This document shows, one piece after another, positions 32,661-60,573 of a DNA stretch of 64,000 bases. The stretch covers positions 4,836,001 to 4,900,000 of the forward strand of contig NC_016472.1 of assembly GCF_000226095.1 (NCBI RefSeq). Reading direction: 5' to 3'. Positions within the stretch are counted from its first letter, which is position 1. Each line of letters opens with the position of its first letter. The notes under the pieces were generated by a model that saw nothing but the letters and a program-made list of their open reading frames with translations, had not been told where the DNA came from and did not search any database. Origin of the DNA: Thermothelomyces thermophilus ATCC 42464 (taxonomy: Eukaryota > Ascomycota > Sordariomycetes > Sordariales > Chaetomiaceae). The position numbers were made by a program, and so were the translations under genes.

Positions 32661-32670
32661 CGATGGAAAA

Positions 32671-32673
<3 letters not shown>
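32661..32673. repeat. LINE target-site duplication, left copy
   Basis: CGATGGAAAATAT. The same 13 bases occur at 60561-60573, on the other side of the 27.9-kb block. Confidence 0.9.

Positions 32674-32714
<41 letters not shown>
32671..32714. repeat. (ATT)n microsatellite = (TAA)n tail of the LINE
   Basis: About 14.5 ATT units, directly after the left target duplication and before the LINE body. On the minus strand it reads (TAA)n at the LINE 3' end, a tail type known from some non-LTR elements such as the I factor. Confidence 0.9.
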
Positions 32715-32727
32715 GTCCTACGCCGTT

Positions 32728-32757
32728 ATGCTAATAAGCATGCCAGAGCCTCTCTGG
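32728..32757 (-). other. two small stem-loops at the LINE 3' end
   Basis: ATGCT-AATA-AGCAT (32728-32741) and CCAGAG-CCT-CTCTGG (32743-32757) lie within 45 bp of the (TAA)n tail. They are candidate recognition structures for the LINE reverse transcriptase. Confidence 0.5.
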
Positions 32758-33899
32758 TTATATACAAAGGAAACCGTGCCTAATAGGCCGGATGAAAACC
32801 TCTGTCCCTCCTTTTAACGCCCAATCCGGAATACTAATACACTACAGAGAAAAGGAGAAGTGGCCAGAATAGCACTATAGAGGCCTTGCCTCCCGGTCTA
32901 GCCTCCTTATGAGGCAGTATTCCGGGAACCTCCCTAGGTCTATTAGCCACTATAGAACCCTCCTTACTAAACGATGGTTATAGGTCCCTATACCCTGTAA
33001 AATAAGGTCTAGGTCCCTTTACGACCGTATTTCCTAGGATTCCTACGTTTAGCTTCTTGGTAGGTTTAGGTACTATATAACTAGGTGCTCTATAGTCTCC
33101 CTCCCCTAGCTATAGGCATAGTAAAGGGTACTAACCCCTAGGACTTAAACCCTAAAAAGGAAGTTATGGAGGCTAATAGCCCCTATATAGGCCTATACTA
33201 GTAAGGAGCTCTAGGCCTTTATTAGGCCCTAGTGCCTTTATAGGCCTTCTTCTATAAAAACTAGATATAAGGGGTCTTTATCTAATATATACTATATCCT
33301 CTTACCGGTTTAGTTAGCCTTTTAATAATTACTTTAACTAGTTACTATAGCTAGTTCTATAGTCTATAGCCTCTTCTATAGGGTCTATAGGGGGGGTAGA
33401 CCCCCTCTATAGCCTTTCTAGACTTATTACTAGACTATCGATCTTACTACCTCTAGGGCTATAGGCTTTAGCTCTTAGCCCCTTGCCCTAGTCTTCCTCT
33501 TCTAGAATCTCTAGCTTAACCTATTATAGGCCTATTAGATAAGAGCCCTTATAAGGACCTAGGAAGCCCCTAGGCCTGCCCTAGTTTATAGGAGTAGCTA
33601 GTTAAGCTTAGCTTTAAAGTTAGCTAGCCTCTTATTAAGATAAAGGTTAAGGGGCGGTACCTAGGCTTCTATTTTGAGGCACCGGATAGGGGTAGCCTTA
33701 TAGGCCTTAGTAACTACTCGAAGGGCCCTATATTAGGCCTTTAATAGTTCCCTAGTAGGGCCTTCTAGCTTACCCCCTGGCTTGGTAGGCTTATGGAAGT
33801 TTAAAGCCCTATAGGTAAAGGCATTATAGATATACTTAGTATAGACCTTATAGGCCTATAGGAGGCTAGGGCCTTAGATCTTTATAATAATCCTAGTTA

Positions 33900-34400
33900 G
33901 AGTAAACTCCTAGGTCTCTAGCTTCTTAGCTACCCTTGTATAGTAAAGGCCTTACTATAGCCTCTAGTCTAGCTAGACCCCTAGAAATCTTACTAACTTT
34001 AAAGGGGCTATAGTAGTAATACCCTCTCTAGGCTATAAGAGCTCTAGTAATTATAATTACTTAGTAATACCCCCTCTAGGCTATAAGAGCTCTAGTAATT
34101 ATAATTACTATTTCCGGCCCTTGTTAAAGTAGATAAGTTTATACTTTTCCAGGGTAAAAGCTATACCCTAGGTCTTTACCTACTATAGGTAGGCCTTCTA
34201 GGCCCTCTATAGCTAACTATTATAGGCCTCCTCGGCCCTCCTAAAGGCTAGAAGGTTAGTATCGTTAGTAAAGCCTATTAAACTAACTATAGGGTAAGCC
34301 TAGTAAATAGCCTAATAGAGAGAAGCTATATAGAGGATAAATAGTATAGGGGAGAGGGGTAACCCCTATAGGACCCTAGCCCTTATTACTATATCCTCTG
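33900..34400 (-). pseudogene. LINE reverse-transcriptase remnant
   Basis: The palm motifs can be read in order on the minus strand (PLSPILF, then GFTNDTNLLA, then EKYKLIYF), but with stops between them. The second residue of the F-x-DD metal site is Asn (GAT to AAT, a C-to-T change on the plus strand). A tandem duplication of about 48 bp at 34,014-34,109 lies in the downstream part. Confidence 0.7.
34014..34109. repeat. tandem duplication, about 48-bp unit
   Basis: Two adjacent near-identical units, each containing CTAGGCTATAAGAGCTCTAG and the palindrome AGTAATTATAATTACT. They lie inside the LINE reverse-transcriptase remnant. Confidence 0.85.
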
Positions 34401-35299
34401 TTTCCTAGCTATCAAAGTAGAGGATAGCTACCTTATCCTATAGCTATTCCTTGACCTAGACTACTACCTACTTTAGGAAGCCCTAGCTCTATAAAGTAGC
34501 TAGTAGCCGAGTATAGTTAATAGTATCGAAAGCCCTTAAGATATCGAGCTATAGGAGGGAGGCAGCTGCTTTATACCTCTAAGCCTTCTAAACTTAAGCT
34601 ATAATAAGCTAGATAGCTAGTTCTATAGACCTATATTCTTAGTTACCTATTTACTTAACTAGGAGAAGCCTATAGGCCTCTATAATAGCCATCACTTTCT
34701 AAGCGACTATAGCTTCTAGTACCTTACCTACTATTAGTAGGAGTGCTATAGGCCTATAGCTACCTAGGGTAAAGTAGGCCTATAGGGGTTTACTAGGCTT
34801 ATAAAGGACTACTGTCTTAGCCCTCTTAAACTAGGCTAGAAAATAGCTAAGCTATAGACTCTCTAAGGCTAATATAGCTAATATCCGGTAGAGCGGCTGT
34901 CTATAGGCCTTTAATAGACCTATAGGAAGGAGGTCCTCCCCTAGGGCTTTCTATAGGGCTGCTCTAGCTAGTACTACTCTAACTTTATCTATTATAACTT
35001 CCTAGCTTACTTTGAACTTCGGCTCCTAGTGGCTATTTAGTTCTAGGTCGTTAATATCTGACAGGTCTACTTCCGGGTTTAGAAAGAACTTATCGGCTAA
35101 TGCTCTAGCCTTCTATTAATAGGTTATAAGCTCCCTTTCGAAGGCTAGGAGCTTTAGAAGGTCGACCGGTAGGTAGCTTTATAGCCTTGCCTATCGCTCT
35201 AGCCTCTATAGTAGGTCTGGCCGGTTAGTTACCTCCTATAATATAGCTCTCTAGCTCTTAGTCTTTACGGCCGTAATAGTCTTAGCCTAGTTCTATAGG

Positions 35300-36300
35300 G
35301 CCTGCCAAAGTGCCTCCTACGTATAGGGGTTTAGGGTGCCCCTATAGGCTCTCTCTACCTCCTTAGCCCTCTTCTAGGCCTCTTAAACCTCCTTCGTCTA
35401 CTATCTAGCTCGTTTACCACCTATACTAACCTTCTTTACCGGAGCCGAGACCGTAGCTATCTCCTTAACGGCCTCTATAAGCCTATCGAAGGCCTATAGA
35501 AGCTCCTCCGGGCTCTAGAAGACAGGCCCGGCCGGGGCCGAAGCCTATCTACCGAGCCAAAGTAGGAGGTAGGCTACTTCGGCCTATGTGACCTCTGTGT
35601 CTAGGCTCTTCTAGTCCTACCCTCTACTAGCTAGTATAGGTCCGCTAGTCCCCTAGAGGGAGACGTATAGGGCCTATAGGTAGTAGTCGGATTTCCCTTG
35701 TTCCGTAATATCCTTATAGGTTGCTTCTAATCCGGCCAAGGCCTAGAATAGGTTTATCGTGGAAGGCTAGCTACGTTAGTCCCCCTAGGGGGCCTTAGTA
35801 ACCTAGCTATAGGGCGTATATAGGTTAAGGTCCTACTAGTCTATAAGGCTAAGGAGGTCCCTAGCCCCCGAGCTAAGCCTATTAAATAGGTCCTAAACTA
35901 GGTAGTAGAGGTTAAAGTCACCTATAGGAACTAGGGGGTAGGTTAGCTAAGGTAAGGCTAATAGGTCTTATAAGAGGGCCTACTCTCCCTTATTATTATG
36001 GATTAACTAGAGCTCGAACCTCCTCTCTCCTAGGGCTAGAAAGGTTACCCTATACTAGTCTTCCCTTACTAAATAGTTCTACCAGCTAACCGGAAAGTGC
36101 TTAGCCACTAGGATAGCCGCTTTACCCTTAGGCTTATAAATAAGGTAATATTTCAAAGCCTAGGGGTAGTATATTAACCCTATAAACCAGTTAATCTATA
36201 GTTCCTAAATAACTAGTAGGTTATATTTAGCCTTCTCTAATAGGACCTTAAAGGCCTATTTATTACCTTAGGTGTTTTACTAAAGGATCTTAATTTATAT
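35300..36300 (-). pseudogene. LINE endonuclease remnant
   Basis: The minus strand keeps the AP-endonuclease motif P-I-GDFN at 35,901-35,937. The rest is crowded with RIP-type stops. Limits are approximate. Confidence 0.55.
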
Positions 36301-36699
36301 TTGAGGTAGCTAGAGCAGAAGACAAGGGTATAGTAGTAGTAAGCTCTATAGCTATTACCTCCTTAACTAGTTACAAGAGGGAGGGGGCTCTAGGCTATAG
36401 GAAGGAAATATAGGTCTATTAGGCATTATGGAGGGCGCTCTTAGCCGCCTACTAGGCCAGAGTAGGCCTTTTATAGGGACGTTTAGCCTCGGTTTAGTAA
36501 TAGTCGTCGTCCTCTAGGGGGCTACTAAACTTAAAGGCTACCTTCTAATATAGCTATTCTAGTAGCTAGAAGGTTTGGGGCTTATATTAGTAGGCCTCCC
36601 TAGCCCTCTCCTAGGCTTTGACTTTCTTTAGGTAACCCCTATACTAGGCTATATAAGGGCTACTATAGGCTATATACCTATAAAGGAGCTAATTAGAGT

Positions 36700-36900
36700 A
36701 GGTAAGGTACTAGGCCTCCTTAGTTTTCCCCCCCTCTCTATAGGCCTTTATACTGTACTAGCCGTAATAGGCTAGCCGCTAGTAGTACCATTAGGTATAG
36801 CTAAAGCTCTAGTATCTATAGCACTACCTTAGCTCTAGGGCATCTTAATAGGGCTTATAGTCTAGCACCTAGGCGTCCTAGACTATACCCTCGTTATAGG
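36700..36900 (-). pseudogene. LINE ORF1 zinc-knuckle remnant
   Basis: A minus-strand frame shows CX2CX4HX4C spacing with Tyr at three of the four metal positions and TAG/TAA at Gln positions, exactly what C-to-T mutation of TGC, CAC and CAG codons would give. A second CxxC-like pair may follow at 36,745-36,773. Confidence 0.55.
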
Positions 36901-37688
36901 CCTTCCGAGCCTCTTCAAGGTTCCGTAAGCCTAGGAGTACTATAGCCTACTTCCTTTATAGGCTCTTTAGCAGCTAGAACTTAACCGTTTCGATCGACTA
37001 TAGGCCTATAGCCCCTTTAAAGTCTTATTTGCTAACCCCTTATAGTTCCTCCCTTTAGATCCCTTTAGCTAAGACTATATAGGCCCTACTAACCTCCCTA
37101 GCCTACTCTCTAAAGGCTATAGCTACCTATTACTTATTAGGTAAATACTAATCCTTAATAGCCTTATTCTTAAAGATTACTATTATATCCCTACTTAGGA
37201 GCTTCCTAGCCGTAACGGCTCCCTAGCGGCTAGAAGCCCTATTAACTACTTAGACTATCTTAGCTAAGGTTCGAGCTTTAAGGTCTTCCTATAGGCTTAT
37301 ATTCCGTATCGTAACCTCTTATAAGGCCTATAATAGCACTACCTTAGCTAATAATAGGCCTCCTTAGGGGCCTACTATCTCCTATTACAACCCTATAGCT
37401 ACCTATGCCTAGGTAAGGCAAGGGGTAGCCTTAAGAGCTTCCTTAAGCTCCTTTTTAACTTCCTTCGCTATAAGTTCTTATAGGTTTAGAACTAGGCCTA
37501 TAATAGTAGTTATAAGGCTCTATAAGAGTCTATTAGCAAGGTCCTATACCTTGCCCTATTTAAGGCTTAGTATAAGGTCGACTAGTTATATAATAAGACC
37601 CTTTAGTTCCTTAATATCTAGGGTAAGGTAGGCCTATAATAGGCCCCCCTTTAATTAGTTCGAAGCTATAGGCCTCCCTACTTAGTAG

Positions 37689-37693
37689 CTTAG
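37689..37693. repeat. element A target-site duplication, left copy
   Basis: CTTAG, matching CTTGG at 60294-60298 apart from one RIP-type G-to-A change. Confidence 0.75.
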
Positions 37694-38054
37694 TGTCAGG
37701 GCGGCCTACCATTAGGCTAGTTATCAAGAGAGGTAGCACTATCATAAAGGCCTTTCTAAGTAGGTTCACACTAATCGTAGGGGCAGGGAAAGTTAATTGT
37801 TCTAGGGCCAGCAGGCTGTCTATTTATATCCCTTTTGAATCGTTATTATATAGACTAATCCTTAGGGAGGAAAACCTCTCTTTCGGATCTATAGGCTAAT
37901 AGATACATCTTATACTACGGATCGGCTATCCCCTTTTCCCGGCTATACCCCGATCGTACCCGTCATAGCAGGGTCATACCCATTGGTGCCCGGGCGTAGG
38001 CCCTCCGGCCGCCGCGGCCTAGCTATGGGCACGGGTCGGCTTACGTTTGTGATA
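37694..38054 (-). repeat. element A 3' LTR (left)
   Basis: Begins TGTCAGGGCGG and ends GTTTGTGATA (TGACA before mutation). Aligns end to end with 59,933-60,293; differences are mostly transitions. Confidence 0.92.
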
Positions 38055-38876
38055 ACTTACTCTCCCCCTTAGTAGGCCTATCTGTAGGCCTATAGGTTCT
38101 ATCGGAATAGCTTTATCCTAGATGCCCATTCCGTAGTAGTAGATCGCCATTGTTTCGGCGCTTTGTTATTACGGCTTTATTCGCGATTATACGTAGAACC
38201 AGTAGGTGCTAGGTACCTTTGTTTTCGTATATATATCGCCATTATTATAATTGCCGTTCGAGTGTTTTCGTCTGAAGATTTGCTTTATTATAAATATATC
38301 TAGTAGTTACTATAGCGTTAGGAAGGTCTCTATTATAGTAATAGAAATAATATTTGACTTTCTTAGAGGGCTGCCTTTTACTCTTGATTTTCTTTTAATC
38401 TTTAACCTTATCTTCTTTATATTATTCGCTCTTTAGCCGCCTATAATTTAATTTTCAAATTTTAAATTTTCATTTTTACGTCTGTAGTAATACTATAGAG
38501 ATTTAGTAGCTTAGTACGGCCGACTTGCTACTATATATACGGTGCTTATATAATGCTATTAAAGATCAAGGCAAATGATAAGGTTCCCCTTGACATTTAG
38601 TATATATTTCTTACTATTAGCTTGTTTAAGTGTTTTCGATGCCGTTAGGGCTACTAGACGAGCTGCTTCTTAATAAGTATATATTTTAAGAGCGATTCCC
38701 TAGGTATTGATAATTATTTAGGCTACCGGTGCTATAACTAGTAATATAGTTAACCTTATAATTATTATCTAGTTTACTTATAAGGTTATTTCGGCCCTAA
38801 AGCTAGATATAGCCGACTCTAAAGACTTATTTATACTTAGTAAGCGCCATTATTATTATATTATTATACTTATAAA
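38055..38876 (-). other. element A internal 3' region
   Basis: RIP-altered, mostly 3' untranslated part of element A between its 3' LTR and the insertion point of X. The polypurine tract lies at its left edge. No motif is visible; the small plus-strand frame at 38,251-38,436 is not a gene. Confidence 0.6.
38872..38876. repeat. element X target-site duplication, left copy
   Basis: ATAAA, identical to 54065-54069. Confidence 0.85.
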
Positions 38877-39158
38877 TGTGACAAACCCAACTTAGACTTC
38901 TTCTAAAAGGGTTTAGACAAAGGTAGATTAAGCGAGACAAGCGTATAGGTCGTCTAAGGGATTTAGTAAAGCTAAAGGGTTTATAACAACACTAGAGTTG
39001 TCTCTTACAATAGTTAGCAATACTTAGTATAAGTACTGTAATTATAGGGTTACTATCACTAGTAAACTCCTAGAGTCCACTATAACGAGTAACTATCTAT
39101 ATATATATATAATCCTAGGATTACTAATAGTCATAGTAATCCTCCATACTGGCTTACC
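38877..39158 (-). repeat. element X 3' LTR, part one
   Basis: First 282 bp of the left X LTR, ending in TTACC where Y is inserted. Continues at 46,789. Confidence 0.9.
39154..39158. repeat. element Y target-site duplication, left copy
   Basis: TTACC, identical to 46784-46788. Confidence 0.9.
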
Positions 39159-39616
39159 TATGACAAACCTAACTCAGACTTCTTCTAAAAGGGTTCAGAC
39201 GAAGGTAGATTAAGCGGGACAAGTAGGCAGGTCGTCTGAGGGATTTGGTAAAGCCAAAGGGTTCACAACAACACTAGAGTTATCTCTTATAGTAGTCAAT
39301 AACGATGCTTGGTATAAGTACTATGATTATAAGGGTTACTATTACTAGTAAACTCCTAGAGTCCATTATAACGAGTGACTATTTATATATATATATACTT
39401 CTGTCGGTCGCTTATAGTCCCCTTCTATCCTGTCCTTAGATTGCCTTCGGTAGCTAGCTATCCTCTGTTATCTTTCCCTTTTTGGCAATTGTTCGCCTGT
39501 GGTAGCCCGCGCTCTCTAGCGATCCTATGTCAGCCTCGCTTCGTGCCCTTCTTGATTGGTAGCTCATTTAGCCTGCTACACCCCACCGGGTCGTGGTATA
39601 TAGTTAGCTTGTAACA
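39159..39616 (-). repeat. element Y 3' LTR (left)
   Basis: Starts TATGACAAACC and ends GCTTGTAACA. The first half aligns with the X LTR; the second half is unique to Y. Confidence 0.92.
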
Positions 39617-40427
39617 CGATGCCCCCTCTTTAGGGCTTTTAACCTAAAAGCTTCTTATAACTTATCTTAAGTACTACTAATACCCCCTTTTCCTAGTAGG
39701 TAATATCCTTCTTCTGCTAACTTCCTTTCGCTATAGCTAATCGTATTCCTAGGAATCGTCGTAATCTTAAACGCAAACGATATACTATTACGATTAAGAT
39801 TAAGCAAGAGGGTTATAAAGTCGCTATACCTTATAAGTATTATTAGAATACGAAGCTATAAAAGCATTATATAATAATAGAAGGTTTAAATAAGTATTAA
39901 AACTATATTTATATAGGTAAGAAGTATAGTAGTCTAAACGTTATAGATGCCTATAGGTTCCTCATTATTTTCCTTTATAGTCTTAGGTTACTAACTATCT
40001 TAGTCCTTTCGAATTTGTTAGAGTAAGAGAAGGTTTCGAGGGAGATTACTAAGACTAAGGCGTTACTTACTTAGATATTAAGCTATTTAAGTCGATTACG
40101 TTGTTTATAGCAATCTCTATACGATTATAGTACCGAAGTTTTTCGTCATAGTATAGCTCGTCTAGAGGAGGAAGAAGAGCTAGATACTCCTCTGCCGATA
40201 TCGGAGACGTAGACCCTTGCGGGTTAGGCTTAGGCGTTAGGTGCTTTTGACGTGCTTAATTAGGAGTCGATCGGGTTAGATCCCGGTTCTAATTCTAGTA
40301 GGTTCCCCTCTTTTTCTATTAGGGAATAGGCTTTAGAGCCGGTTTTTATAGCTAGTTAAGATTCTACCGGTAGAACTATTTTAGTTTCTTAAGGTAATTT
40401 AGGTTCTTAATAGGTTCTTATAAGTTA

Positions 40428-40540
40428 TCTTCTAGTCTGAAATCAAGCTATTTAACTAGGTATTATAATTCTCTATTAATGATATATAAATCTAGAATCT
40501 CTTCAACGTCTTATTCTTCCTCTTTATCTTCTACTTCGAT
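40428..40540 (-). pseudogene. Y chromodomain remnant
   Basis: The minus strand reads DVEEILD, then YLVK-stop-LDF and EDNL. The stop replaces the conserved Trp (TGG to TAG). A chromodomain at the pol C-terminus defines chromoviruses. Confidence 0.75.
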
Positions 40541-41049
40541 ATATATAATAACCTTAGCGTTCTTTAGTGCTAGTTCGAGAAGTGAAATATGAAAAACATC
40601 TATCTATAGTTATATAGATAACGGTAATGATAGTCGGTAGTTAGATGTTAAAATTCGTTCTTTAATAATGAAGGGTCTGACCTTCTTAAAGTCTAGCTTT
40701 GTATTTAGTCGTTTGGTTCGTAAGTTTTATACAATTAGGTAGACTTTGTCTCCCCTCTCTAGGTAAGGTCCCTCGAGCCTATGTTTGTCGTAGTAGTTCT
40801 TCATTCTAGTCTTAATAAACTCGAGTTCCTTTTTAAGCTTTTTATATAGTGTATACATTTGTTTTGCTTTGATTACTGCTCTTGGTACTATGACCTCTAG
40901 TCCTTACCTAAGGTCTGCTTTATATCTATAATTCGCGAAGAATGGTATAACTTTAGTCGTTTCTATTAGCGTTATATTATAAGCGAGTTATACTATTAGT
41001 AATAGTATAACCTAGTCGTTTTGCTAGTAGTTAATAAAAGAATAGAGAT

Positions 41050-41200
41050 ATTACTTAATAACTTGGTTTAGTCGCTCCATTTATCTGTTAGTCTACGGGT
41101 AATATGCTATTGATAGCTTACTATTAATGCCTAATCGTTATATTAACGCTTGTTAGAACTTCGACGCGAACTTAGTATCTCTATTGATAATCTATTCTTA
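41050..41200 (-). pseudogene. Y integrase core remnant
   Basis: Contains INRDTKFASKF, LGIN-x-KLS, AYYP and MERLNQVIK in one minus-strand frame, with TAG/TAA at expected Gln or Trp positions. Confidence 0.75.
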
Positions 41201-42599
41201 CGGCTAAGTATATACTAATATAACTTGCTAATAGATTATATCTACTAACTATTCTACTATCTAGGACTCCTTATAGAGAAAGAAATATACCTATTTAGTT
41301 AGGTAATCTACTACGGTAAGAATACTATTATAGGTCACTCCTATAGCTATATCCTTAGATTCTAGTAGCTTTGTAATAAAGTCTATTATAACTAAACTCT
41401 ATAGTTTATTAGCTATTAGTAGTAGCTAAAGTAACCTATACGGCTTATATTATGCCGTTTTGCTTCGATTATAAATGTTATAATTCTATACGACTTCCTT
41501 AACTTATACCGTTAACTGTAGAAAGTCATAGTGTTTCCTGACTTATACGATAGTCTTTGTAACTCCTTTATATCCTTCGAGTTTCGACTTATAGAGTTCC
41601 TAAATCATTTATAGCTATTGATCCCCGTTATAGATATATACTTTGCCTTGGTACTAGAGTTTCCTATCTCTTTCTTCTACTCTATTAGATACTAATAGTC
41701 TAGGTACTACTTGATACTATATCTTGTTAATCCTTTCTTCTCGAAAGATTACGTAACACTCTAGGAACGAGTTAAGTAGATTATCTTCTACAGGTGTTTA
41801 CATTTCGTAATATAGCGTTCCGTCTGTTCGTTCCTTGAACAACGGTAGTGTTGTTTCCGTTCGTCCTTCTATATGATCCGTTCGTCGGCTTAAGATGTCT
41901 GCTCATACGTTCTCTTTGCCCTTCTTATAGCGGATCTTGAAGTTAAATTCCGCGAGGAATTCTGCCTATCGTATTTGTCGTTCGTTAAGCTCCTTTGTTG
42001 TCGTAAAGTATTATAAGTTCTTGTAATCTATATATACTTATACTAGTTTAATTATACTACTAAGGTATAGTTACCATTCCTTGAAAGCTTTGATAATCGT
42101 AAGTAGTTCCTTGTTATAGATCGGATAATTAAGATATAGTCTATCGAGCTTCTTTGAAAAGAAGGCTATAGGATATAGCTTTCTTTGTCTATCTCGTTAT
42201 CCTAATTATCCTCTAATAGCATAGTCTGAAGCGTCTGTTTCTATCTTAAATAGCTTCTTAGGATCTAGTAATACTAGTATTAGATCTTTAGTAATAGCGT
42301 TACAGATCTATATAAATACTTACTTGTGCTATTCTTTCTATTGGAATTTAGTGTTCTTCCTAGTAAGTTTATATAAAGGTTATATAATCGCTCTAAAGTT
42401 CCTAATGAACATCCGGTAGAAGTTTGTAAATCTGATAAAGCTTCGTACTTCTGTAACTAACGTTAGTTATAGCCAATTCTTAATAGCTTTAACCTTTAAA
42501 GGTTCTATCTAGATTTGTCCTAGGGATATCTCGTATCCTAAAAATACCGTTTTCCTAATATGGAATTTACTCTTTTCCTTATTAACTAATAATTTATAT

Positions 42600-42760
42600 A
42601 TATATAGCGTGTCTAGCACTGCTTTTATATACTTCCGGTGTTCATCTATTGTCTTAGAGAAGATAAGTATATCGTCAAAATAATATATTATAAATTTGTC
42701 AAGAAAGGGTCGGATAGCTTGATTAATTAGGGCTTAAAATATTACTGGTGTATTTATAAG
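42600..42760 (-). pseudogene. Y reverse-transcriptase active-site remnant
   Basis: IIYYFDDILIFSKTID can be read on the minus strand, so both catalytic Asp codons are intact here. Confidence 0.8.
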
Positions 42761-45700
42761 TCCGAATAGTATGACAAGGTACTTATAATAGCTATAAGGT
42801 GTCCTAAAGGCCGTTTTCTACTCATCGCCTTTTTTGATCTATATATAGTTATAGGCCGATAATAAGTCAAGACGTGTAAAATATTAGGCTCCTGCTAACT
42901 AATCTTAGAGCTATAAGATTAGTAGTAATAAGTATCGGTTTTTCACGGTCTATTTGTTAAGTTACTAATAGTCAATATATAACTATAGCTTTCTGTCTTT
43001 CTTAGGTATGAATAGGATTAGATAGCCTACTAGTAATATTAATAGGCGGATATATCTCCTTCGAAGGTTCTCTTCTAAATATTACTTAAGTTCTTCGTTC
43101 TAAGTTTAGCTTATATAATAGATTTTAAAGAACTTTAGTCATACTCCTTCCTTAAGCTTATTCTCGTAATCCTATAGGCTATATTCTAGTAGTCCTTCTA
43201 GATACTTCGGTTCGAATGCTAGGTATCCTTTATATTCTTTCGGTACTTCCCTAGTCTTATCTCGTTTCTCGGTTTTCTAATAATATACAAACTTGGTTCC
43301 GTCTATAGCGATACTAGCGATTTCTCTTGTCTTAACCTACTACTCCTATTATAGTGCTCCGTATTTATTAATAGAGAGAATAGCTATCAGCGGTTTAGCT
43401 TGTTCCTCTTATTGTAATATCGATGTCGTTATACTGCCTCTTCTAGAGTCTATAGTGGTCTATCTACCACTATCTATCTCTTATAATAGATCTATAGGAT
43501 ATGCCTTCCCCTAAGTATCGTCTGCTTGTAATCCTTATATACTCCCTATTTTGCTAGTTAAATACGACTCCGTTTAGGGTCATAGGTAGCTACCATTCTT
43601 CTAGCTAATATCTAGGTTATAATCTTTATACTATAGTAACCTTAATATTATATCTTTGTCATTACCTATATCTATAATACTAAATATGACTACTATAGTC
43701 TTTCCTACTATAGTAATATTAATCGGTTCGGTTTCCTTATATACCTATTATGTCGGAAATGGCCCTTTGACTATGCCATGCTTCTACTTTATTCTCTAGG
43801 GTATCTATAGCTAATTTATAAGCGTTGGCGAAATTAGGTTTATCTCTACTCTACTATCTACTAGTATAAGTATTTCGTGCTATTTCTATTATACTGTTAT
43901 CTATAGTCGCTTATCTTACCGCCGTCGTCTAAAGATTGTAGCGATTTCCTATATTTCTACTAGGAGGTCTTGATATAGTGGTCTCTTGCGCTAGTTCCTC
44001 CTATACTACGTTACTACTTGCCACTACGCGGGCGTTAATAGTTTCTAGGCCCCTCGAAGGGCCCTAACCTATTTCCTAGGTTAGTGCTAACCTCTTCGGT
44101 TATTTGGCTAATAGCGGCTTTGTTAATCGTGCTCATTTCCGTAAGCCATTAAGTGCTTATAGCTTTCTACTATTAAGTCTATTCTACTTTTTATTATATA
44201 TGCTATAGCTTTATCTAAAGCTCCTGAATTCGCGATTTCTTTTCGTCTATATAATAGAGGTAATTGTTGCTCTAGTATAAGTCCTATATATCTTGTCTTA
44301 TTCCGTAGTACCTAGGCTAGGCTCGTTTTAGAACTATCGTAATGCCTTCTAGATCACGAGCTTCGATCTTCTAGAGCAATTTGGCTGCTCTGTTTCTTAT
44401 ATCGTAGACCTATTCCATGGGATGTAAGCTTCTGTCCTCATTTCCTTGTTAGGTCGGCTAGTAATTATTTTTAAATTTGTCGTAGAAGTGGTATCGGCAT
44501 CTGTATACTATATACTAGAACCAGGGCACTTATATATATGCCTTATGTCGAGGATGTAGTTGCGTAGTGTTACCTAGGAGGTATTAGAATTCTTTCCTAC
44601 ATCCTTCCTATTATATATAGACTATAGGTACTCTAATGCTATAGTAGGAGTGTTTCTTCTAGTAGCTCTCCTATATATACTCGTCTTTTCCGCGATTCGT
44701 ATATATAAATTAGTATTCTAAGTTCTATATATCGTTACTAAGTTACTAGTCATTAAGGTACTTAGTATAATTATTAGGCCTATTATATATTATAGGCTAT
44801 CTTCCTTTGATAGTTTCTACGATACGTTAGAGTTCCCTTGTCTCGTCTCTTATCTTATTACTCTGCTAAATAAGTCAAATCAAGCGTCTATCCCATTCGC
44901 GTAGTTCTATATTAAGCCGGAAAACTTTATTACGGTACCATTTAATTTGTTCCTAGAGGAATAGAATATTAGGTCTAAGTCTTTTGATTCCTTAGGTGTC
45001 GGTTGTCTACGATCTATCCTACCTCTATATAACCGTAAAACCCTACTGCCTTGAGGCTAGGAGAATCGAAATTAGCGGTATATATTCTCCTACTATATTC
45101 TATTTAGCAAGACCTGTCTCTAGGTCTATAGTGACCAGTTTGGAGTATAGTGCTTGTTCGTCTTTACCATTGCTATCGTATCCGAAACTGTCCGTATTAC
45201 TACCCCTGTCTTCGTAGCTCGTGGCCGCTACTTCGATAACGTCCTTAGTAGTTTCGTTAATAGCCGTAATTTCCTTTCTAGGGACTATCTTCTACTCTTT
45301 CTTTAAGCTTTGACATTCTTGCTTATAGTGCCTTTTCTTTCCATAGTTATAGTAGATAATATTAAACTTATCTCTAGTTATCTTCTTCTAATCTTACTTT
45401 TATACTATATCTATATCTATAGCTCTAGGGTATGTCCTATACAAAGTACTAACATACGTTTACTTTTTCTTATTATTAGCCTTAACCGTAGTTCTATTTA
45501 TTCGACCTTATTTTTACTACTCTTATATATAGAGTTAATTATTAATTCTAATAGCCTATATAATATATTTATCTAGAGTTTTAGGCCAATTATACTTATA
45601 TAGCTTATCTTTAACCTTTTTCTTTAAGCCGTTATAGAATAATTATATTAATACTTTGTTATTAAGCTAAGACTTAAGCATGTCCTATCTAAACTATATA

Positions 45701-46310: not shown

Positions 46311-46322
46311 AGTAATAGCAAC
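46311..46322 (-). promoter_or_regulatory. Y putative self-priming primer-binding site
   Basis: GTTGCTATTACT on the minus strand, one base past the 5' LTR. It can pair with the LTR sequence at 46,500-46,511 apart from one C-to-T (RIP-type) difference. It does not start with the TGG of tRNA-primed elements. Confidence 0.6.
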
Positions 46323-46323
46323 G

Positions 46324-47830: not shown

Positions 47831-47921
47831 CCTCTTTGTTCTCTGCTTCGATATATATAGCAACCTTAGCGTTCTTTAGTACTAGTTTGAGAAGTGAAAT
47901 ATAAAAAACATCTGTCCGTAG

Positions 47922-49939: not shown

Positions 49940-50030
49940 CGTACTTCTAGTATTTATCTATTGTCTTAAAGAAGATAAGTATATCGTCAAGATAATATAT
50001 TATAAATTTGTTAAGAAAGGGTCGGATAGC
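49940..50030 (-). pseudogene. X reverse-transcriptase active-site remnant
   Basis: IIYYLDDILIFFKTID on the minus strand; the catalytic Asp pair is intact. Confidence 0.8.
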
Positions 50031-53000
50031 TTGATTAATTAGAGCTTAGAACGTTACTAGCGTATTTGTAAGTCCGAATAATATAATAAGGTACTTATAG
50101 TAGCTATAGGATATCCTAAAGGCCGTTTTCTACTTATCGCCTTCTTTAATCTATATATAATTATAGGCCGATAGCAAGTCAAGATACGTAAAATATTAGG
50201 CTCCTACTAACTAATCTTAGAGCTATAAGATTAGTAGTAACAGGTATTAGTTTTTCACGGTCTATTTGTTAAGTTACCGATAGTCGACGTATAACTATAG
50301 CTTTCCATCTTTTTTAGGTATAAACAGAATTAGGTAGCCTACTAGCGATATCAACAGGCAGATATATCCTCTTTAAAGGTTCTCCTCTAAATATCGCTTA
50401 AGTTCTTCGTTCTATATCTAGCTTATATAGTAAATCTTAAAGAACTTTAGTTATACTCCTTCCTTAAGCTTAATCTCGTGATCCTATAGGCTATATTCTA
50501 ATAATCCTTCTAGATATTTCGGTTCAAATGCTAGGTGTCCCTTATACTCCTTTAGTACTTCCCTAGTCTTGTCTCGTTTCTCGGTTTTCTGATAGTATAT
50601 AAACTTGGTTCTGTCTATAGCGATACTAGCGATTTCTCCTATCTTAACCTACTACTCTAGTTACAGTGCTTTATATTTATTAATGGAGAGAATAGCTATC
50701 GGTAGTTTAGCTTGTTCCTCCTATTATAATATTAGTATTATTATATCGCTTCTTCTAGAGTCTGTAATAGTCTGCCTACCATTGTCTGCCTCTTATAGTA
50801 GATCTATAGGATATGCCTTCCCTTGAGCATTATCTGCTTACGATCCTTGTATACTCCCTATCTTGCTAGTTAAATACGACTCTATTCGGGGTTATAGGTA
50901 GCTACTATTCTTCTAACCAATGTCTAGGTTATAATCTTTATACTATAATAATTCCAATATTATATCTTTGTCGTTACCTATGTCTATAATACTAAATACG
51001 ATTACTATAGTCTTCCTTACTATAGTAATGTTAATCGGTTCGGTCTCCCTACATATCTATTACATTAGAAATAGCCCTTTGACTATACTATACTTCCGCT
51101 TTATTCTCTAGGGTATCTGTAGCTAATTTATAAGTGTCGGCGAAATTAGGTTTATCTCTACTCTACTATCTACTAGTATAAGCATTTTATACTATTTCTA
51201 TTATACTATTATCTATAGTCACTTGTCTTACTACCGTCGTCTAAAGATTATAGCGATTTCCCATATTTCTGCTAGGAGGTCTTAATATAATAGTTTCTTA
51301 TGCTAGTTCCTTCTATACTATACTACCACTTGCTACTATATAGGTGTTAATAGTTTTCGGACCCCTTAAAGGGCCTTGACCTATTTTCTAGGTTAGTATT
51401 AACCTCTTTAGTTATTCGGCTAATAGCGGCTTTATTAATTATACTTATTTCTGTAAGCTATTAAGTGCTTATAGCTTCCTACTATTAGGTCTATTCTACT
51501 TTCTATTATACGTACTATAGCTTTATCCAAAGCTCTCGAATTCGTAATTTCTTTCTATCTACATAATAGAGGCAATCGTTACTCTAGCACGAGTCTTATA
51601 TGTCTCGTCCTATTCCGTAGTACCTAGGCTAGGCTCATTTTAGAACTACTATAATGCCTTCTAGATCGCGGGCTTCGATCTTCTAGAGCAATTCGGCCGC
51701 TCTGTTTCTAGTATTATAGACCTATTCTATAGGGCGGAGGCTTCTATCCTCATTTCCTTGTCAGGTCGGCTAGTGATTGTTTTCGAATTTGTTACGAAAG
51801 TAGTATTAGTATCTGTATAATATATACTAGAACCAGGGCACTTATACATATGCCTCGTATTAAAGGTATGGTTATATAGTATTACCTAGGAGGTATTAGA
51901 ACTCTTTCTCGAATCCTTCCTACTATATATAGACTATAGATATCTTAACGCTAAGGTAGGAATGTTTCTTCTAGTAGTTTTCCTACGTATATTTGTTTTT
52001 TCCATAGTTCACGTATATAAACTAGTACTCTAGGTTCCGTATATTATAGCTAAGTTGCTAGTCGTTAAAATACTTGGCGTAGCTATCAGGCCTATTATAT
52101 ATCATAGACTGTTCCTCTTTGATAGTTTCTACGATACGTCAGAGTTCCCTTATCTCGTCCCTTATCTTATCGCTCTACTAGACAAGTCGAATCAAGCGTC
52201 TATCCTATTCGCGTAGTTCCGTATTAAGCCAGAAAACTTTATTACAATACTATTCGATTTATTCCTAGAGGAATAGAATATTAGGTCTAGGTCTTTCAAT
52301 TCCTTAGGTATCGGTTATCTATAATCTATCCCGCCTCTATATAACTATAAAACCCTACTACCTTAAGGCCGGGAGAATCGAAATTAGTAATATATACTCT
52401 CCTACCATATCTTATTTGGCAAGACTTATCTCTAGGTCTATAGTAACTAGTTTAGAGTATAGTACTTATTCGTCTTTACTATTACTATTATATCTAAGAC
52501 TATCTATATTACTATCCCTATTTTCGTAGCTTATAGCCGCTACTTCGATGACATCCTTAGTAGTTTTATTAATGACTATAATTTCCTTTCTAGGGACTAT
52601 TTTCCATTCTTTCTTTAGGCTTTAGCATTCTTATTTATAGTGTCCTTTCTTTCTATAGTTATAATAGATAATATTAGACTTGTCTTTAGTCGTCTTTTTC
52701 CTATCCTACTTCTATACTATATCTATATCTATAGCCCTAGGATATATTCTATACAAGGTATTAACGTATACTCGTTTTTTCTTGTCATTAGCCTTGACTA
52801 TAGTTCTATTTATTTGACCTCGTTTCTACTACTCTTATATATAGAGTCAATTATCGATTCTAATAGCCTATATAATATATTTATCTAGGGTCTTAGGCTA
52901 ATTATACTTATATAGCTTATCTTTAACCTTTTCCTTTAAGCTATTATAGAATAGTTATATTAATATCTTATCGTTAAGCTAAGACTTAAGTATGTCCTAT

Positions 53001-53622
53001 CTAAACTATATAGTATAGGAGGCTATTAACTTAGTCTATCGGAGATTAACAAGTCTTTCTTATATATAAATCTTCTTATTTTTATCGCTAAAAACCTTCT
53101 AAAGCTCTTTTTTGAAACGGTTATAGGATCAAAAGACTACCTATATAAATATATCTCGATCGTCTTTATCTTCCTTAGTAAGATAGTCATTCTATATAGG
53201 CTTAAACCATCTAAGTGCCTTGCCCTCTAGTCTTGTAGCTATATAGAGGACTTTAGCTTTATCGTCTAGAAACTTATTATCATTAAGCCAAAAGTAAGAT
53301 TAGAGGTTTATTAGGAACTTTACGAGATCCTCCTTAGTTCCTCTATATTTACTAGGTAGTTCGATCTTAATACGGCTCGCTTTAGCGCCTTCGAGTACCT
53401 TGATTTTGGCGTAGGCCTTGTTAACTAGCTTCTATAAGTGCTTTTCGCCATTCTTAAGTTCCTTAATTCGAGCTTAAGCAGCCTTGTCTCTCTAGTCTAA
53501 CTCCTAGATCCGCTAATAGAGTTAACCAAGCTAGGCAAGTAGCTATTCGGCCGTAACATTAGTAGTTATATCGATATTAAGGTCAAAATTACCTTCGTCC
53601 TAAACTATAATGGAACAAAGGG

Positions 53623-53634
53623 AGTAATAGCAAC
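53623..53634 (-). promoter_or_regulatory. X putative self-priming primer-binding site
   Basis: GTTGCTATTACT on the minus strand, one base past the 5' LTR. It is an exact 12-nt complement of the LTR transcript sequence at 53,808-53,819. Confidence 0.65.
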
Positions 53635-53807
53635 GTATAACGAACCTAACTTAGACTTCTTCTAAAAGGGTTTAGACGAAGGTAGATTAAGCAGGACAAG
53701 CGTACAGGTCGTCTAAGGGATTTGGTAAAGCCAAAGGGTTTATAATAATACTAGAGTTATCTCTTATAGTAATTAGCGGTGCTTGGTATAAGTACTGTGA
53801 TTGTGGG

Positions 53808-53819
53808 GTTGCTATTACT
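53808..53819 (-). promoter_or_regulatory. X presumed 5' end of transcript, complementary to the primer site
   Basis: AGTAATAGCAAC on the minus strand. In Tf1-type elements the first about 11 nt of the RNA pair with the primer site and act as primer. The position relative to the TATA box fits a transcript start. Confidence 0.5.
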
Positions 53820-53856
53820 AGTAAACTCTTAGAGTCTACTATAACGAGTGACTATC

Positions 53857-53871
53857 TATATATATATATAA
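53857..53871 (-). promoter_or_regulatory. TATA-rich box in the X LTR
   Basis: Alternating TA run in the LTR, just before the shared R-U5 part on the minus strand. Present in the Y LTR too. Confidence 0.5.
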
Positions 53872-54064
53872 TCCTAGAATTACTAATGGTTGTGGTGATC
53901 CTCTGTACTGGCTTACCTGGCTTATATTATGAGCTAGTGATCCTCTGCTAGGATCATTTCTTGCCAAGTGTAATCCTGTCCTGATTGGCCTATCATTCCT
54001 GCTGTCCTATTGGCCTGTTAGGGAGGCGGCTTAGGCGGCGTCCTATATGTATATTTTCGTAACA

Positions 54065-54069
54065 ATAAA
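54065..54069. repeat. element X target-site duplication, right copy
   Basis: ATAAA, directly after the X LTR end. Confidence 0.85.
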
Positions 54070-55044
54070 CGATATAGTTATTACTTTTGAGGTAGTTAAG
54101 AAATACTACTAGTCTAATATAGGCTTTATTAGTAATAGTAGTAAGAAGATTACTTTTATAGGAACCTGTTTGTTTTTGCTTATAATTTAGTATAGATATT
54201 AATATATTTATAGGAGTAATAGCTAGTATATAGTAAGTTTATAACTAATTATGAGTATATAATTATAGCTACTAATCTATAGCCTAAGTTTAATATTAGT
54301 ATAGTATATTTAATTACATTTTAGTTTACCTAATTATTTATTAATATAGTATAGGTACTATATAATCTTATAATCTAGTAGTATTTACTATTACCTTGTC
54401 TAGAGCCTATTAATAAAGGTTATATCACTTGGTAAATAGCTAAGTATAAGTTCGTTATTAAACTAGGTATACTTATAGTAAGAGCCCTAGGTAGTAAGGG
54501 CAAGGCAGCCCGATTTTTAGGCAAATATACGGTAGACTTAGAGTTTATCTTCTATAGTAGCTTTTAATAGGGTTTTTAAGGTAGTAAAACTTTGTCTTAT
54601 TTTCATTTTTTTTAATTATATAAAATAGATACCCTTTTAGCCCCAAATTAGTATTATAGATTTACTCTACTAGTTCATAGTACTATGATATAAATGTTTT
54701 TTTTTACTAATTTTAGTATCTCTAATAAGGCCTTCTTTACTATAGTTTCAATATAATGTTAATTTATAATATAGTTCTCCATAATATAGCTTAGGGCCCC
54801 TCCTAGGGTGCCCTTCTCTAGGCATTTTCTACAGTATTTCGATTACAGTCTTAGGGTATATTACTATAGTAACGCGCTACCCTACCTAGCGTACTTTTCC
54901 TTAGGATATATATCCAGGCGTTTTCCGCGGGCGCCCTCTTCCTAGCCTCTTCTTATGCTTTTCCGTACCGTATTATAGGCGCTCTATAGTCATAGTACGC
55001 TTTTTAAACTTATATACTTTACTCTATATATTGGCGATGTCTTC

Positions 55045-55180
55045 TTTGTCTACCTATTGGTTAAATTTAAAGGGCTATTCCTTCTACTTTACTAGGAACT
55101 AACGGGTTCTACTACTGGCCTACTTTGCTAAAACCTCCTTAACCTCCTATTCTTTATCGTCTTTAAGTTCCGGTATTGGT
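55045..55180 (-). pseudogene. element A chromodomain remnant
   Basis: The minus strand reads EVKEVLAK, ASSRTR-stop-FLVK-stop-KE and PFKFNQ. The stops sit where the family has Trp. Confidence 0.75.
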
Positions 55181-57009
55181 ATTTATTTTGTCTTATTTTG
55201 ACTATATAAGTGTTATAGTTCGAGTAGGGAAATAGGGAAGACGTTATATAGCTAGGTATATTATATAGGTAACGTTAGCCAATATACTAGTAAACTAACT
55301 AAGTCAAGTACCTAAAATAGGTTAATAAATTTAGAGGTTAATTTTTTAGGTATCTTTAGCTTAAGATTCTAGGTCAAGAGTAGGACAAAGTTGCCTCTCT
55401 TAAATACCTTTCTTTAATGCTTTCGGTCGTAGTAAATTTTATAATTTTAGATAGCTTCCTTCTAATATACTTTTAGTTATTTTTATAGTGCTTGTAATTT
55501 CTTGATTTTTTTTATTACGTTAGGGTGGTACCTCCCTTTTAGCGAATTGTCCCTAATTCGTAATAAAATTAGAGGGTTATAGCCTATTAATGCTCGAAAA
55601 AAGGGTAGTCTAGTGGTTATATTAATAGTATTATTATATATAAACTCTACTTCTAAGAGGATTTGTACCCAAATTATAAGGTTTGCTATAGTAAAATAAT
55701 AGAGGTATTATATAAGTGTTTAGTTACCTTACTTGGTTTAGCTATTAGTTTAAGGGTAAAATGCTATAGAGAGCTTCCTAGTAATGTAGTTTAGGTAGTA
55801 GAGATCTGCCTAAAATTAGGAAGTAAATATAGAGCTATAATTACTTATATAGCCTTCTAACATACTATACTTAAGTTTAATCTCCTTATAAATTAGCTTA
55901 GTAAGCCGGTAACTTATAATATTTAAATTAATAACAAAGAATCGGTTTATCTTAATATAGTAGTCTATAACTATAAGTATAGTATTCTTTTCCTTTACTT
56001 AGAAATTTACTATAGGAAAACCTATAATTATATCTATACTAATCTCTTACTAGGGTTAGTTAGGGATCGGTAGGGATTCTAAGCTACTATAACCTTAATA
56101 CTATCTTAGCTTATTTGTTTAGTAAATATAGTAGGTTTGGTACTAATGTCTAACATCTCTTATTAGGCCTAGCTAGTCAAACTTCCTTTAAATAAGTTTA
56201 CTAGTTCTTTTAGGGCCAAAGTACCTAGCTTTAGCATTATTATAATATAACTAGAGGATTTCTTGCCTTATAGCTTCTTCTTTAGGAATATAAAGTGCTC
56301 TTTTATAGAGTAGCTTGCTATCGTATCTTAAGGACTATAGTTTAGCTTTACTACTGTTTCGCTAGCCTTTTATTATACCCTTTTCTAGGCCTTCCCTTAC
56401 TCTTTAGATTAAGAGGTCTGATCTTTAGAGCTCTGAAATATACTCTCTAAGTATTTATAATAGTTAGATAGTAGAAGCTAATTCTAGTCTTACTATCTCT
56501 TTAGCCTATCTTTATAATATAATTAGCTTTCTTTTAAGGTATACTTGTTCTATATCGTATAATCCCTTTGGATTAACTTTTAATAACTAGACTCTAATTT
56601 AATATTAAAAAGATCATAAAACTCTCTATACTTCTTATACCTTTTTATAGTTTACTATCTTTCTTTAGATTATAGGTAATTATTCTTAGTTCCCAAAAGA
56701 ATTATCTTCTTTATAATCTAATCTTCTTAAAGGGCTATCTATAGGATTTTACTTCCCTAGCTAGTACTTAATAGTAAAATCAAAGCCTAATAAATATATA
56801 TATTATCTAGCTTAATAACTATTAAGTTAGATTTATCTTATAAATCCTTATAAATTATCATAATTTAAATAGACTATAATTTTATAAGGATTTCCTATTA
56901 AATAGTATTACTAGTGCTTAAAGCCTTTTATAATCGCTATTATTTCCTTGTTAGGGGTATTATAATGGTAGGCTAGTCTTAAGAACTTAGCTAACCAAAA
57001 TATAATGAG

Positions 57010-57560
57010 ATGTTTTCGAGAGTCCTCTACTTATTATAATAAGACGGCCCCTATTATAAACGTAGAAGCGTCTATTTCGATGGTTATCGGCTTTTTAGAA
57101 TCGAAATACCAGAGAACCGGTGCCGATTTGAAGTAGTTCTTAATTTCTTGAAATGCTCTTTGTTCCTTAAGGTTAAACTAGACTTCTCCCGGTTTCTTCC
57201 CCTTTTCTAGCCCCTTTAGTAGACTTATTAGGGGGTAGGCGATCTGTAAAAAATTGCGAATAAATTTCTAATAAAAATTAATAAATCCAAGAAATACCTA
57301 AATATCGTAATGGGTCTAGGGTTCTGGCTATTTCTCCATTATTTCAATTTATACTAGGTCTATTATGATTCCTTGCCGATTTACTATAAATCTAAGGAAG
57401 TTAACTTAATCCTTATAAAATAAACATTTACTAGGTTTATAATATAGTTATATATTCTATAGTTATTTAAGGATCTTTTAGATATATTTTATATATATTT
57501 TACGGTTAGGTGAAAAAATCAAGATATTATCTAAATAAACTATATAAAATTTGTTAAGTA
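57010..57560 (-). pseudogene. element A reverse-transcriptase and RNase H remnant
   Basis: YIVYLDNILIFS (57,510-57,546; the second Asp is now Asn) followed on the minus strand by IEIDASTFIIGAVLL (57,041-57,083), the start of RNase H. Confidence 0.8.
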
Positions 57561-59932
57561 GTCTACCTAATGCTTAATAAATATAATTTTAAAAAGTAGC
57601 TAATATATTTATTAGACCAAATAGTATAACTAAATACTTAAATAATCTATAGCGAGTTTGAAAGGCGGTTTTCTATTTATCCCTTTCTTATACTTGAATC
57701 TGGTAATAAGCGTCTTTAATATTAAGCTTAGTAAAAAATTAAACGCCGGAAGTATAGTTAAGGATCTCCGAAATAAGAGGTAATAGGTAGCGATTCTTCT
57801 GGATAATCTTATTAAGTCCTTAGTAATTAATATAAAAATAAAGGCTTCTATCTCTTTTAGATATAAATAGGACTAGACTAGCTACTAAACTCTTGGAAGG
57901 TTAAATCCTCCCCTTAGTAAGGTTTTTATCAAAAGTAAGGTTTTTATCTAAGTATTCCTATAGTATACTAAGTTTATACTAGGATAAGGGGTAAATCGGT
58001 CTAATTAGAGGAGTCGTCCCTAGTTATAGGTCGATCTTATAGTTAGTTACTTTAAACGAAGGAAGGATACTCGAATTTAATATATCTATTATATCGGGGT
58101 AAAGTCTCGTAACTTAGGGGGAATTTCTTCCGGGTTTCCTAAGGGTTTTGGTTCTTCCTTGTCAAGGACTGGATCTATAGGGACATCTAAGATAGTAATT
58201 AATATAAAGACCTAGGCTCCCCTTCGGCAGTCCTTTTCTATTCTTTTAAAGTACTAGAGTCGGGCTATCTCGGTTTCTAGTAGAAACTACTAGCGATTCT
58301 CTATTAGGAATAATAAGATGGTAAGATTACTAAGTATAGGTACTTCTAATAAAACCGGCAAGGTTTTAATATCATGGCTAATGATAATATAGGGGTAATT
58401 ATATTAATATATAATTCTATATTTGTCGGTTAATATAATTAGTACCTAATATACTTTATAGAATGCTATAACCATTTCGTTAAATTATTAAATTATAGGT
58501 AGAATATAGGTAAGTTATTTTAGTTAGTATTTCTAAATAAGGTTAAAGTCTATAATATTTACTTCCATATAAGAATCTAGGTCTACTATTGTCGAAACGC
58601 CTTTATATATATTTATTATAATAGCTATATATATATATTCTCTTTTTAGGTCATCCCTTATAGCTATTCTTATAGTATTAGGGTCTACTATAAGTAACTC
58701 CTATTTCCCTAGTAAAAATAGCCTAAACCCTAGTAATTAAGGTATTAGCCCTGTTAGTAAGAGGTAATCTATACTATTTCTAGGCATTCTCTTGTAAAAT
58801 GTCCCTCCTTTCTATATTGGAAATATGAGCTATTACTTTATATCTTTAGAGTAGGGGTTAATATAAGGTTTAAGGCACCTTATAGGGCTAGTTATAGCTT
58901 CGTTATAGGTTTAGTTTAATAGTAAGACAATAATATATAAAAATGTAATATATTAGGCATATAATGTAGTTAATCTTAAATTAGTAGTAAAAAGAGGGTA
59001 GTCTAACCATGATTTGGTCATTAGAAGCTATATTAGATTTATAATACTAACTATACCATTCCTTTTCATATCTCTAGGCAGTAGGTATAATAATAGTTAA
59101 TATATTAAATAAGGAAAGGTAATAGCTTAGTATAGAAGCTTAAGGCTTAGCTTTTCTTATCCTAGTAGGGAAACTAAGCTTTAAAGAATTCGAGGTAATA
59201 GTAAAGATCCTATAAAGACTAGCTATTTTACTAGTAAGCCGAATTTAAAGCTTTAGCTACTTAAGATACCTAGTCCATAAGGTCAATTATATAGGCGTTT
59301 ATCTGCTCTTCGAATAGAGTCTAGTTACCTTCTAACTAATTATACTCTTTAGGTAATATATTCTAATAATAGCTATATTAATAGTTCTAAGGTTACTTAT
59401 TTATATAATTAAATATAAATAGGATATAATTCTACAAAGTCTTAAACTACCTAGGGTCTCCCTAAAAAGTATATTATAAATCTTAAAGCTACTCTTACTA
59501 TTACTAATAGATTATTATATTAATAAATCGAATTAGATTAGTAACCTTAATAGCCTTAGAATAGTATCTTAAGTCATTAGAATTAGAGGATTTAGTAGGT
59601 AATCGGGGTCATTTTAAGCCCTTTATACGGTCTAGTAGTCCTAACTTCTCTAGTAAGAACTTTTCCTAATCTTATAACTACTATAGCCTTTCTAGCTCCT
59701 TAACCTAGCCTTCTAGATTCTAGATAAGCTCTTCGCGGTTAGGGCCTTACATTAAGGGCTCTAAATTAGGGGATATTAGGATATAAAGAGGGGGTTTAGA
59801 ATGGTTTTACGGCCGATATTAGGCTAAAAGGGTCTTACTTTAGCTTAAGGGTTCTTCCTCTAGTCTTATAGGCATTAAATGGCTAAGTGACGATACTATC
59901 TCGATTAACAAAGGGTAGGAAGGATTAGAAAC

Positions 59933-60293
59933 TATTAGGGTAGCCTGCTATTAGGCTAGTTATCAAGAGAGGTAGTACTATTATAAAGGCCTTTCTAAGC
60001 AGGTTCGTACTAATCACGGGGGCAGGGAGAGTTAATTGTTCTAGGGCTAGTAGGCTACCTATTTATATCCCTCTTAAATCGTTGTTATATAGACTAATCC
60101 TTAGGGAGGAAAACCTCCCTTTTGGATCTGTAGGCTAATAGATATATCTTATACTACGGATCGGCTATCCCCTTTTCCCGGCCGTGCTCTAATCGTGCCC
60201 GTTATAGTAGGGTTATACCTATTAGTGCCCGGGTACAGGCCTTCCGGCCGCTACGGCCCGGCCGTAGGCACGGGTTGGCTTGTGTTTGTGACA
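59933..60293 (-). repeat. element A 5' LTR (right)
   Basis: 361 bp, matching 37,694-38,054. Starts TATTAGGGTAG and ends GTTTGTGACA; its outer third is less mutated than the left copy. Confidence 0.92.
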
Positions 60294-60298
60294 CTTGG
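60294..60298. repeat. element A target-site duplication, right copy
   Basis: CTTGG; the partner of CTTAG at 37689-37693. Confidence 0.75.
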
Positions 60299-60560
60299 CG
60301 GTAGGCTTTAAATTAATGTTACATTTAGGGGCGCTAGGTAGTCTGTGTGGTGAAAATTTTAACGGGCGCGCGAGGTGTGGTCGGATTGCGGTCGGGTCCG
60401 GTTCCAACGCCTGCGATGCCTGTTGCACACCCGCAACGGCTCGCGCGCGGTTGAGAGTGGTACCGTTAGATAGCGTTTTTCGAGAGCTTTCTAGCGATGA
60501 TAGTTTCGTAAGTTTTGGTGGGGTATTCGTATAGGGTGTAGGGTAGGTAGGCCGGGTGTT
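60299..60560 (-). pseudogene. LINE 5' segment that escaped RIP
   Basis: 262 bp of normal composition with CAA, CAG and TGG-type sites intact, open in one minus-strand frame with no ATG. The frame continues into the mutated LINE body at 37,688 when element A and one duplication are removed. Confidence 0.65.
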
Positions 60561-60573
60561 CGATGGAAAATAT
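60561..60573. repeat. LINE target-site duplication, right copy
   Basis: CGATGGAAAATAT, identical to 32661-32673. Confidence 0.9.

What the first reader, a model, noticed from the sequence alone, without database searches (positions are those of the whole stretch)
32661..60573. Four mobile elements nested inside one another, each with its own target-site duplication
Boundaries can be read directly. LINE: 13-bp duplication CGATGGAAAATAT at 32661 and 60561. Element A: 361-bp LTRs, CTTAG/CTTGG. Element X: 429-bp LTRs, ATAAA/ATAAA. Element Y: 458/460-bp LTRs, TTACC/TTACC. This fixes the order of insertion as LINE, A, X, Y. Without the inner elements the three LTR elements are about 7.4, 7.6 and 7.6 kb, a normal full length, so nothing large appears to be missing. 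A complete four-level nest with all duplications readable despite RIP is a rare record of insertion history.
Basis: seen in the sequence. Interest (0 to 1): 0.85.

Follow-up and report, generated by a model that had tools for sequence, protein, structure and literature searches.

The report
Four nested, RIP-mutated fungal retrotransposons
A stretch of fungal chromosome really does hold four jumping genes inserted one inside another, each with its insertion scar still readable, but the same genome holds at least one more nest just as deep, so it is a clear example of something ordinary.

Summary
The four-level nest is real and the coordinates are right. A LINE (13-bp duplication) holds LTR element A, A holds X, and Y sits inside X's own LTR. 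The flanks of each insertion are contiguous elsewhere: 10 LINE copies across the A site, 25 of 26 A copies across the X site, X's other LTR across the Y site. This fixes the order LINE, A, X, Y. Rarity is not supported: 28 of 54 classified X/Y LTR copies lie in DNA of these same families, 16 of 16 paired elements keep a 5-bp duplication, 10 of 16 have LTRs over 8 kb apart, and the one further nest opened, on C6, also has four levels and six elements with five readable duplications. The three LTR pairs differ by 153 transitions and no transversion, so LTR divergence cannot date them. More interesting: X, Y and a third type Z share gag-pol and R-U5 (interior transversions 0.2-0.3%) but carry distinct, linked 3' modules (about 740 bp plus U3), switching just behind the chromodomain. 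This resembles Podospora crapaud, with a longer exchanged block.

The parts
32661..32673 (.). LINE target-site duplication, left copy CGATGGAAAATAT
60561..60573 (.). LINE target-site duplication, right copy
32674..37693 (-). LINE body with (AAT)n 3' tail at its left end (read on the minus strand); about 34.0-34.8 kb corresponds to the reverse transcriptase of a homologous copy
   Evidence: RVT_1 match at C6:3995863-3996642 overlapping a LINE copy, mapped by coordinates
60299..60560 (-). LINE 5' end, cut off from the body by element A; the last 26 bp or so (60535-60560) do not align with ten other copies
37689..37693 (.). Duplication of A, CTTAG
60294..60298 (.). Duplication of A, CTTGG (one transition from CTTAG)
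   Evidence: single CTTRG in ten uninterrupted LINE copies
37694..38054 (-). A LTR, left
59933..60293 (-). A LTR, right
38055..38871 (-). A interior, left part (strand inferred)
54070..59932 (-). A interior, right part (strand inferred)
38872..38876 (.). Duplication of X, ATAAA left
54065..54069 (.). Duplication of X, ATAAA right
38877..39158 (-). X LTR, first part (R-U5 side), interrupted by Y
46789..46935 (-). X LTR, rest of the interrupted copy (U3 side)
53636..54064 (-). X LTR, uninterrupted copy, control for the Y site; U3 53871-54064
46936..47670 (-). X-specific 3' interior module
47671..53635 (-). X interior shared with Y and Z (gag-pol); integrase SH3 piece 47925-48299, chromodomain position about 47679-47819
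39154..39158 (.). Duplication of Y, TTACC left
46784..46788 (.). Duplication of Y, TTACC right
39159..39616 (-). Y LTR, left (458 bp)
46324..46783 (-). Y LTR, right (460 bp); U3 46563-46783
39617..40358 (-). Y-specific 3' interior module
40359..46323 (-). Y interior shared with X and Z; reverse transcriptase piece 42512-42733

Best explanation
Four successive retrotransposon insertions into one site, 0.5 kb upstream of a RAD51 gene. A LINE inserted first by target-primed reverse transcription. LTR element A then inserted into the LINE, X into A, and Y into X's LTR, each integrase making a 5-bp staggered cut that was filled in as a duplication. RIP mutated the elements. Shown: the nesting, the duplications, contiguity of the outer elements elsewhere, transition-only divergence, RT and integrase pieces in X/Y, and a chromodomain in genome copies of the X/Y block. 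Inferred: elements with a chromodomain integrase pile up in the methylated, RIP-mutated chromatin of earlier insertions, which makes nests the expected outcome in this genome. The confidence given is for the nest and its order; for the targeting step it is about 0.6.
For: Duplications and LTR ends. Contiguity with un-joined flanks: 10 LINE copies carry a single CTTRG, 25 of 26 A copies reaching the X site are contiguous (overlap of 5 bases, 8 either way allowed), and the other X LTR is uninterrupted. RIP: composite index 0.87 to 2.30 in the element parts against -0.46 and -0.67 in the flanks; the three LTR pairs differ at 153 of 1,248 sites, all transitions, 85 of 153 in CpA/TpG context. RVT_1 (E 1.4e-11) and SH3_Tf2-1 (4.6e-7, 30.3 bits against a cut-off of 30) in open pieces of Y and X. 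Four PF00385 places that I chose from the 150 listed (32.4-42.3 bits, cut-off 25.1) are all homologous to the X/Y block at 80-86% identity. Chromodomain targeting of H3K9-methylated chromatin shown for MAGGY: PMC2832683, passages read.
Against: The transversion clock cannot confirm the order: there are none in the three LTR pairs, so only topology orders them. The chromodomain pieces of the window itself, read with X at stops, gave no Pfam match, and the window's own places are not among the 150 PF00385 matches listed (150 of 330 candidates scored). Three A pieces matched no Pfam family, so A's class rests on LTRs, duplication and weak similarity. Heterochromatin targeting is inferred; no histone data exist here. 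68 of the 153 LTR differences are not in a plain CpA/TpG context (30 mixed, 38 other). No other strain and no long reads were available.
Confidence: 0.95

Rival explanations
1. Assembly artefact: repeats collapsed or joined wrongly so that they only look nested.
For: All parts are multi-copy, which is where assemblies fail; no reads were available.
Against: No N in the window. Every junction carries a matching duplication, and the outer sequence on the two sides continues in register as in other copies. A wrong join would not be expected to make duplications at all four levels.
Confidence: 0.03
2. The nest arose by segmental duplication or ectopic recombination that copied an already nested block from elsewhere.
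For: Other nests of the same families exist in this genome.
Against: The outermost LINE has its own 13-bp duplication; the left flank 32000-32660 has one genome match and no listed hit of the right-end query reaches past the LINE into the right flank. The duplications of the C6 nest differ from those here.
Confidence: 0.02
3. The nest is real, but nesting reflects chance and tolerance: insertions survive where no gene is hit, without any targeting. (Rival to the targeting step only.)
For: C6 insertions lie in both orientations and at scattered sites. This nest itself starts only 0.5 kb from RAD51. PMC4522978 saw no obvious insertion preference in M. graminicola (passage).
Against: 28 of 54 copies lie in DNA of just these families, and a chromodomain is present in the family; neither fact excludes tolerance.
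Confidence: 0.4

Closest known systems
Nested transposon clusters of Mycosphaerella graminicola (PMC4522978; passages read)
   Same: LTR and non-LTR elements nested to several levels, 5-bp duplications verified, RIP-like AT-rich block, genes nearby
   Different: Another fungus; here a LINE is the base element and Y lies within an LTR of X
crapaud LTR family of Podospora anserina (PMC10787394; abstract, sections 8 and 12 and passages read)
   Same: Subfamilies differ in the U3 half of the LTR, share R-U5, and interiors do not follow LTR type; RIP-mutated
   Different: Here the type-specific block also includes about 740 bp of 3' interior next to U3. Whether X/Y/Z are crapaud relatives was not tested
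Chromodomain Ty3/gypsy elements such as MAGGY (PMC2832683, passages; PMC3248453, search listing only)
   Same: RT, integrase with Tf2-1-type SH3 fold, chromodomain at the end of the shared block
   Different: Distinct 3' modules directly behind the chromodomain

Membership tests
Nested transposon cluster | Inner element interrupts the outer one and is flanked by a target-site duplication | tested here: met
   for all four levels; one transition in the A duplication
Nested transposon cluster | Outer element is continuous at that site in other copies | tested here: met
   10 LINE copies, 25 of 26 A copies, X's other LTR
Nested transposon cluster | Empty site in another strain | not testable with these tools
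   no relatives of G000 are held (note)
Chromodomain Ty3/gypsy element (X, Y) | LTRs with 5-bp duplication | tested here: met
   16 of 16 further elements
Chromodomain Ty3/gypsy element (X, Y) | Reverse transcriptase and integrase with SH3/GPY-F module | tested here: met
   open pieces, RVT_1 and SH3_Tf2-1, the latter just above its cut-off
Chromodomain Ty3/gypsy element (X, Y) | C-terminal chromodomain | tested here: inconclusive
   no Pfam match for the damaged window pieces; PF00385 over the cut-off in four homologous genome copies that I chose
Ty3/gypsy element (A) | RT/integrase domains | tested here: inconclusive
   three open pieces of A gave no Pfam match; 55-73% nucleotide similarity of interior stretches to X/Z interiors in the C6 nest
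LINE | No LTR, longer duplication, simple-repeat 3' tail | tested here: met
   13 bp and (AAT)n tail
LINE | Reverse transcriptase | tested here: met
   RVT_1 103.2 bits with 12 TAG at C6:3995863-3996642, overlapping a LINE copy; no such match or motif in the window's own pieces
LINE | Endonuclease domain | not tested
   -
crapaud-like U3 subfamilies | Divergent U3, conserved R-U5, interior not following type | tested here: met
   the interior comparison rests on four elements
crapaud-like U3 subfamilies | Sequence homology to crapaud | not tested
   no crapaud sequence was fetched

The most novel reading that the evidence does not exclude
X, Y and Z are one chromodomain retrotransposon whose whole 3' end, from just behind the chromodomain through U3 (promoter side of the LTR), is exchanged as a linked block between copies. 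Copy-choice between co-packaged RNAs would do it: one switch at R, forced by strand transfer, and one at the end of pol. The family would change its promoter while keeping one homogeneous gag-pol.
Probability: 0.55. Interest if true: 0.5.

Novelty: new member of a known kind. Interest (0 to 1): 0.33.

Why it matters
It gives a fully legible insertion order at one locus and shows that a nest of this depth is not unique in this genome. The 9-15% divergence of its LTR pairs is made of transitions only, so ages taken from LTR divergence would be far too old. It also exposes a linked 3'-module polymorphism that can test whether LTR elements change promoters by RNA recombination.

Full report
The window lies at G000:C1:4836001-4900000 of a 38.74-Mb, 7-contig genome. 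Size and chromosome number match the published description of Myceliophthora (Thermothelomyces) thermophila (PMC4061905, one passage), but identity was not proven. GC falls from about 0.55 in the flanks to 0.28-0.45 over most of 33-60 kb. RIP indices mark the block: the composite index is 0.87 to 2.30 in the element parts against -0.46 and -0.67 in the flanks.

Anatomy. The LINE lies on the minus strand: its (AAT)n tail is at the left end next to the left CGATGGAAAATAT, and its 5' end is at the right. A Pfam RVT_1 match with 12 TAG stops overlaps a homologous LINE copy on C6 in the matching orientation. A (361-bp LTRs) interrupts the LINE 262 bp from its 5' end. X (429-bp LTRs) interrupts A's interior. 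Y (458/460-bp LTRs) interrupts X's left LTR after base 282. Open pieces of Y and X on the minus strand match RVT_1 (E 1.4e-11) and SH3_Tf2-1 (30.3 bits, cut-off 30); three pieces of A match nothing. A's minus orientation and Ty3-like class are read from pieces by eye, with motifs recalled, and from weak similarity, so they are inferred.

Test of the nesting without splicing. Each flank was searched separately in the genome. For the A site, 39 left-flank and 40 right-flank LINE places outside the window were compared (lists capped at 40 scored of 208 and 126 candidates; the window itself and one 38-bp hit were dropped). Ten places appear in both lists and abut, and in all ten the alignment shows one CTTRG and no insertion. 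For the X site, 31 left-flank and 32 right-flank places outside the window were listed; 26 left-flank hits reach the junction and 25 of these continue directly into the right flank, while one has no right-flank hit. For the Y site, X's other LTR is uninterrupted. The nest and its order are therefore confirmed. The last 26 bp or so of the LINE's 5' end (60535-60560) do not align with the ten other copies, so its exact 5' end differs from theirs.

RIP and dating. The three LTR pairs differ at 53/361, 57/429 and 43/458 sites, all transitions; 85 of these 153 lie in CpA or TpG context, 30 in mixed and 38 in other contexts. The 16 further pairs have 688 transitions and 3 transversions in 7,020 sites. 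LTR divergence here is therefore best read as RIP and not as time, and the order rests on topology alone. The insertions are young in the sense that almost no transversions have accumulated.

Mechanism. Inferred: a chromodomain integrase directs new copies to H3K9-methylated DNA, as shown for MAGGY (PMC2832683, passages), and RIP-mutated transposons are commonly such DNA (recalled), so nests grow. Chance and tolerance remain a fair rival. For the 3' module, copy-choice between two packaged RNAs with one switch at R and one behind pol explains a linked block on a homogeneous interior; recombination at the LTR template switch was put forward for crapaud of Podospora (PMC10787394, section 8). The alternative is old subfamilies whose interiors were homogenised by gene conversion. 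Both are compatible with the data.

Verdict. The 3'-module pattern is the part worth following.

Noticed in passing
window 61106-62236 (+): A RAD51 gene (Pfam Rad51, 437 bits for the piece 61277-62233; start codon inferred) begins about 530 bp to the right of the nest; the gap between shows no RIP (composite index -0.76 in 60574-61100).
   Followed up: partly
G000 whole genome: 30 of the 150 listed chromodomain places lie in open frames of 1,264 aa (18) or 1,287 aa (12) with only three different scores, so other chromodomain elements exist in many near-identical undamaged copies, unlike X, Y, A and the LINE.
   Followed up: no
window 39617-40358 and 46936-47670, with U3 46563-46783 and 53871-54064: Type-specific 3' modules linked to U3 type; a third type Z occurs in the C6 nest and elsewhere.
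   Followed up: yes
window 60535-60560: The last 26 bp or so of the LINE 5' end, just before the exact 13-bp duplication, do not align with ten other copies.
   Followed up: partly
C6:1813149-1828738: An X element appears inserted into an X LTR of opposite orientation (LTR parts 1-135 and 130-429 on either side).
   Followed up: no
L074, C6:4019331-4019421, and L075 near C6:4034156-4034225: Both LTRs of the nested Y on C6 have 70 bp outside the U3 match; in the left one these 70 bp begin almost like the U3 start that follows, i.e. a likely tandem duplication.
   Followed up: no
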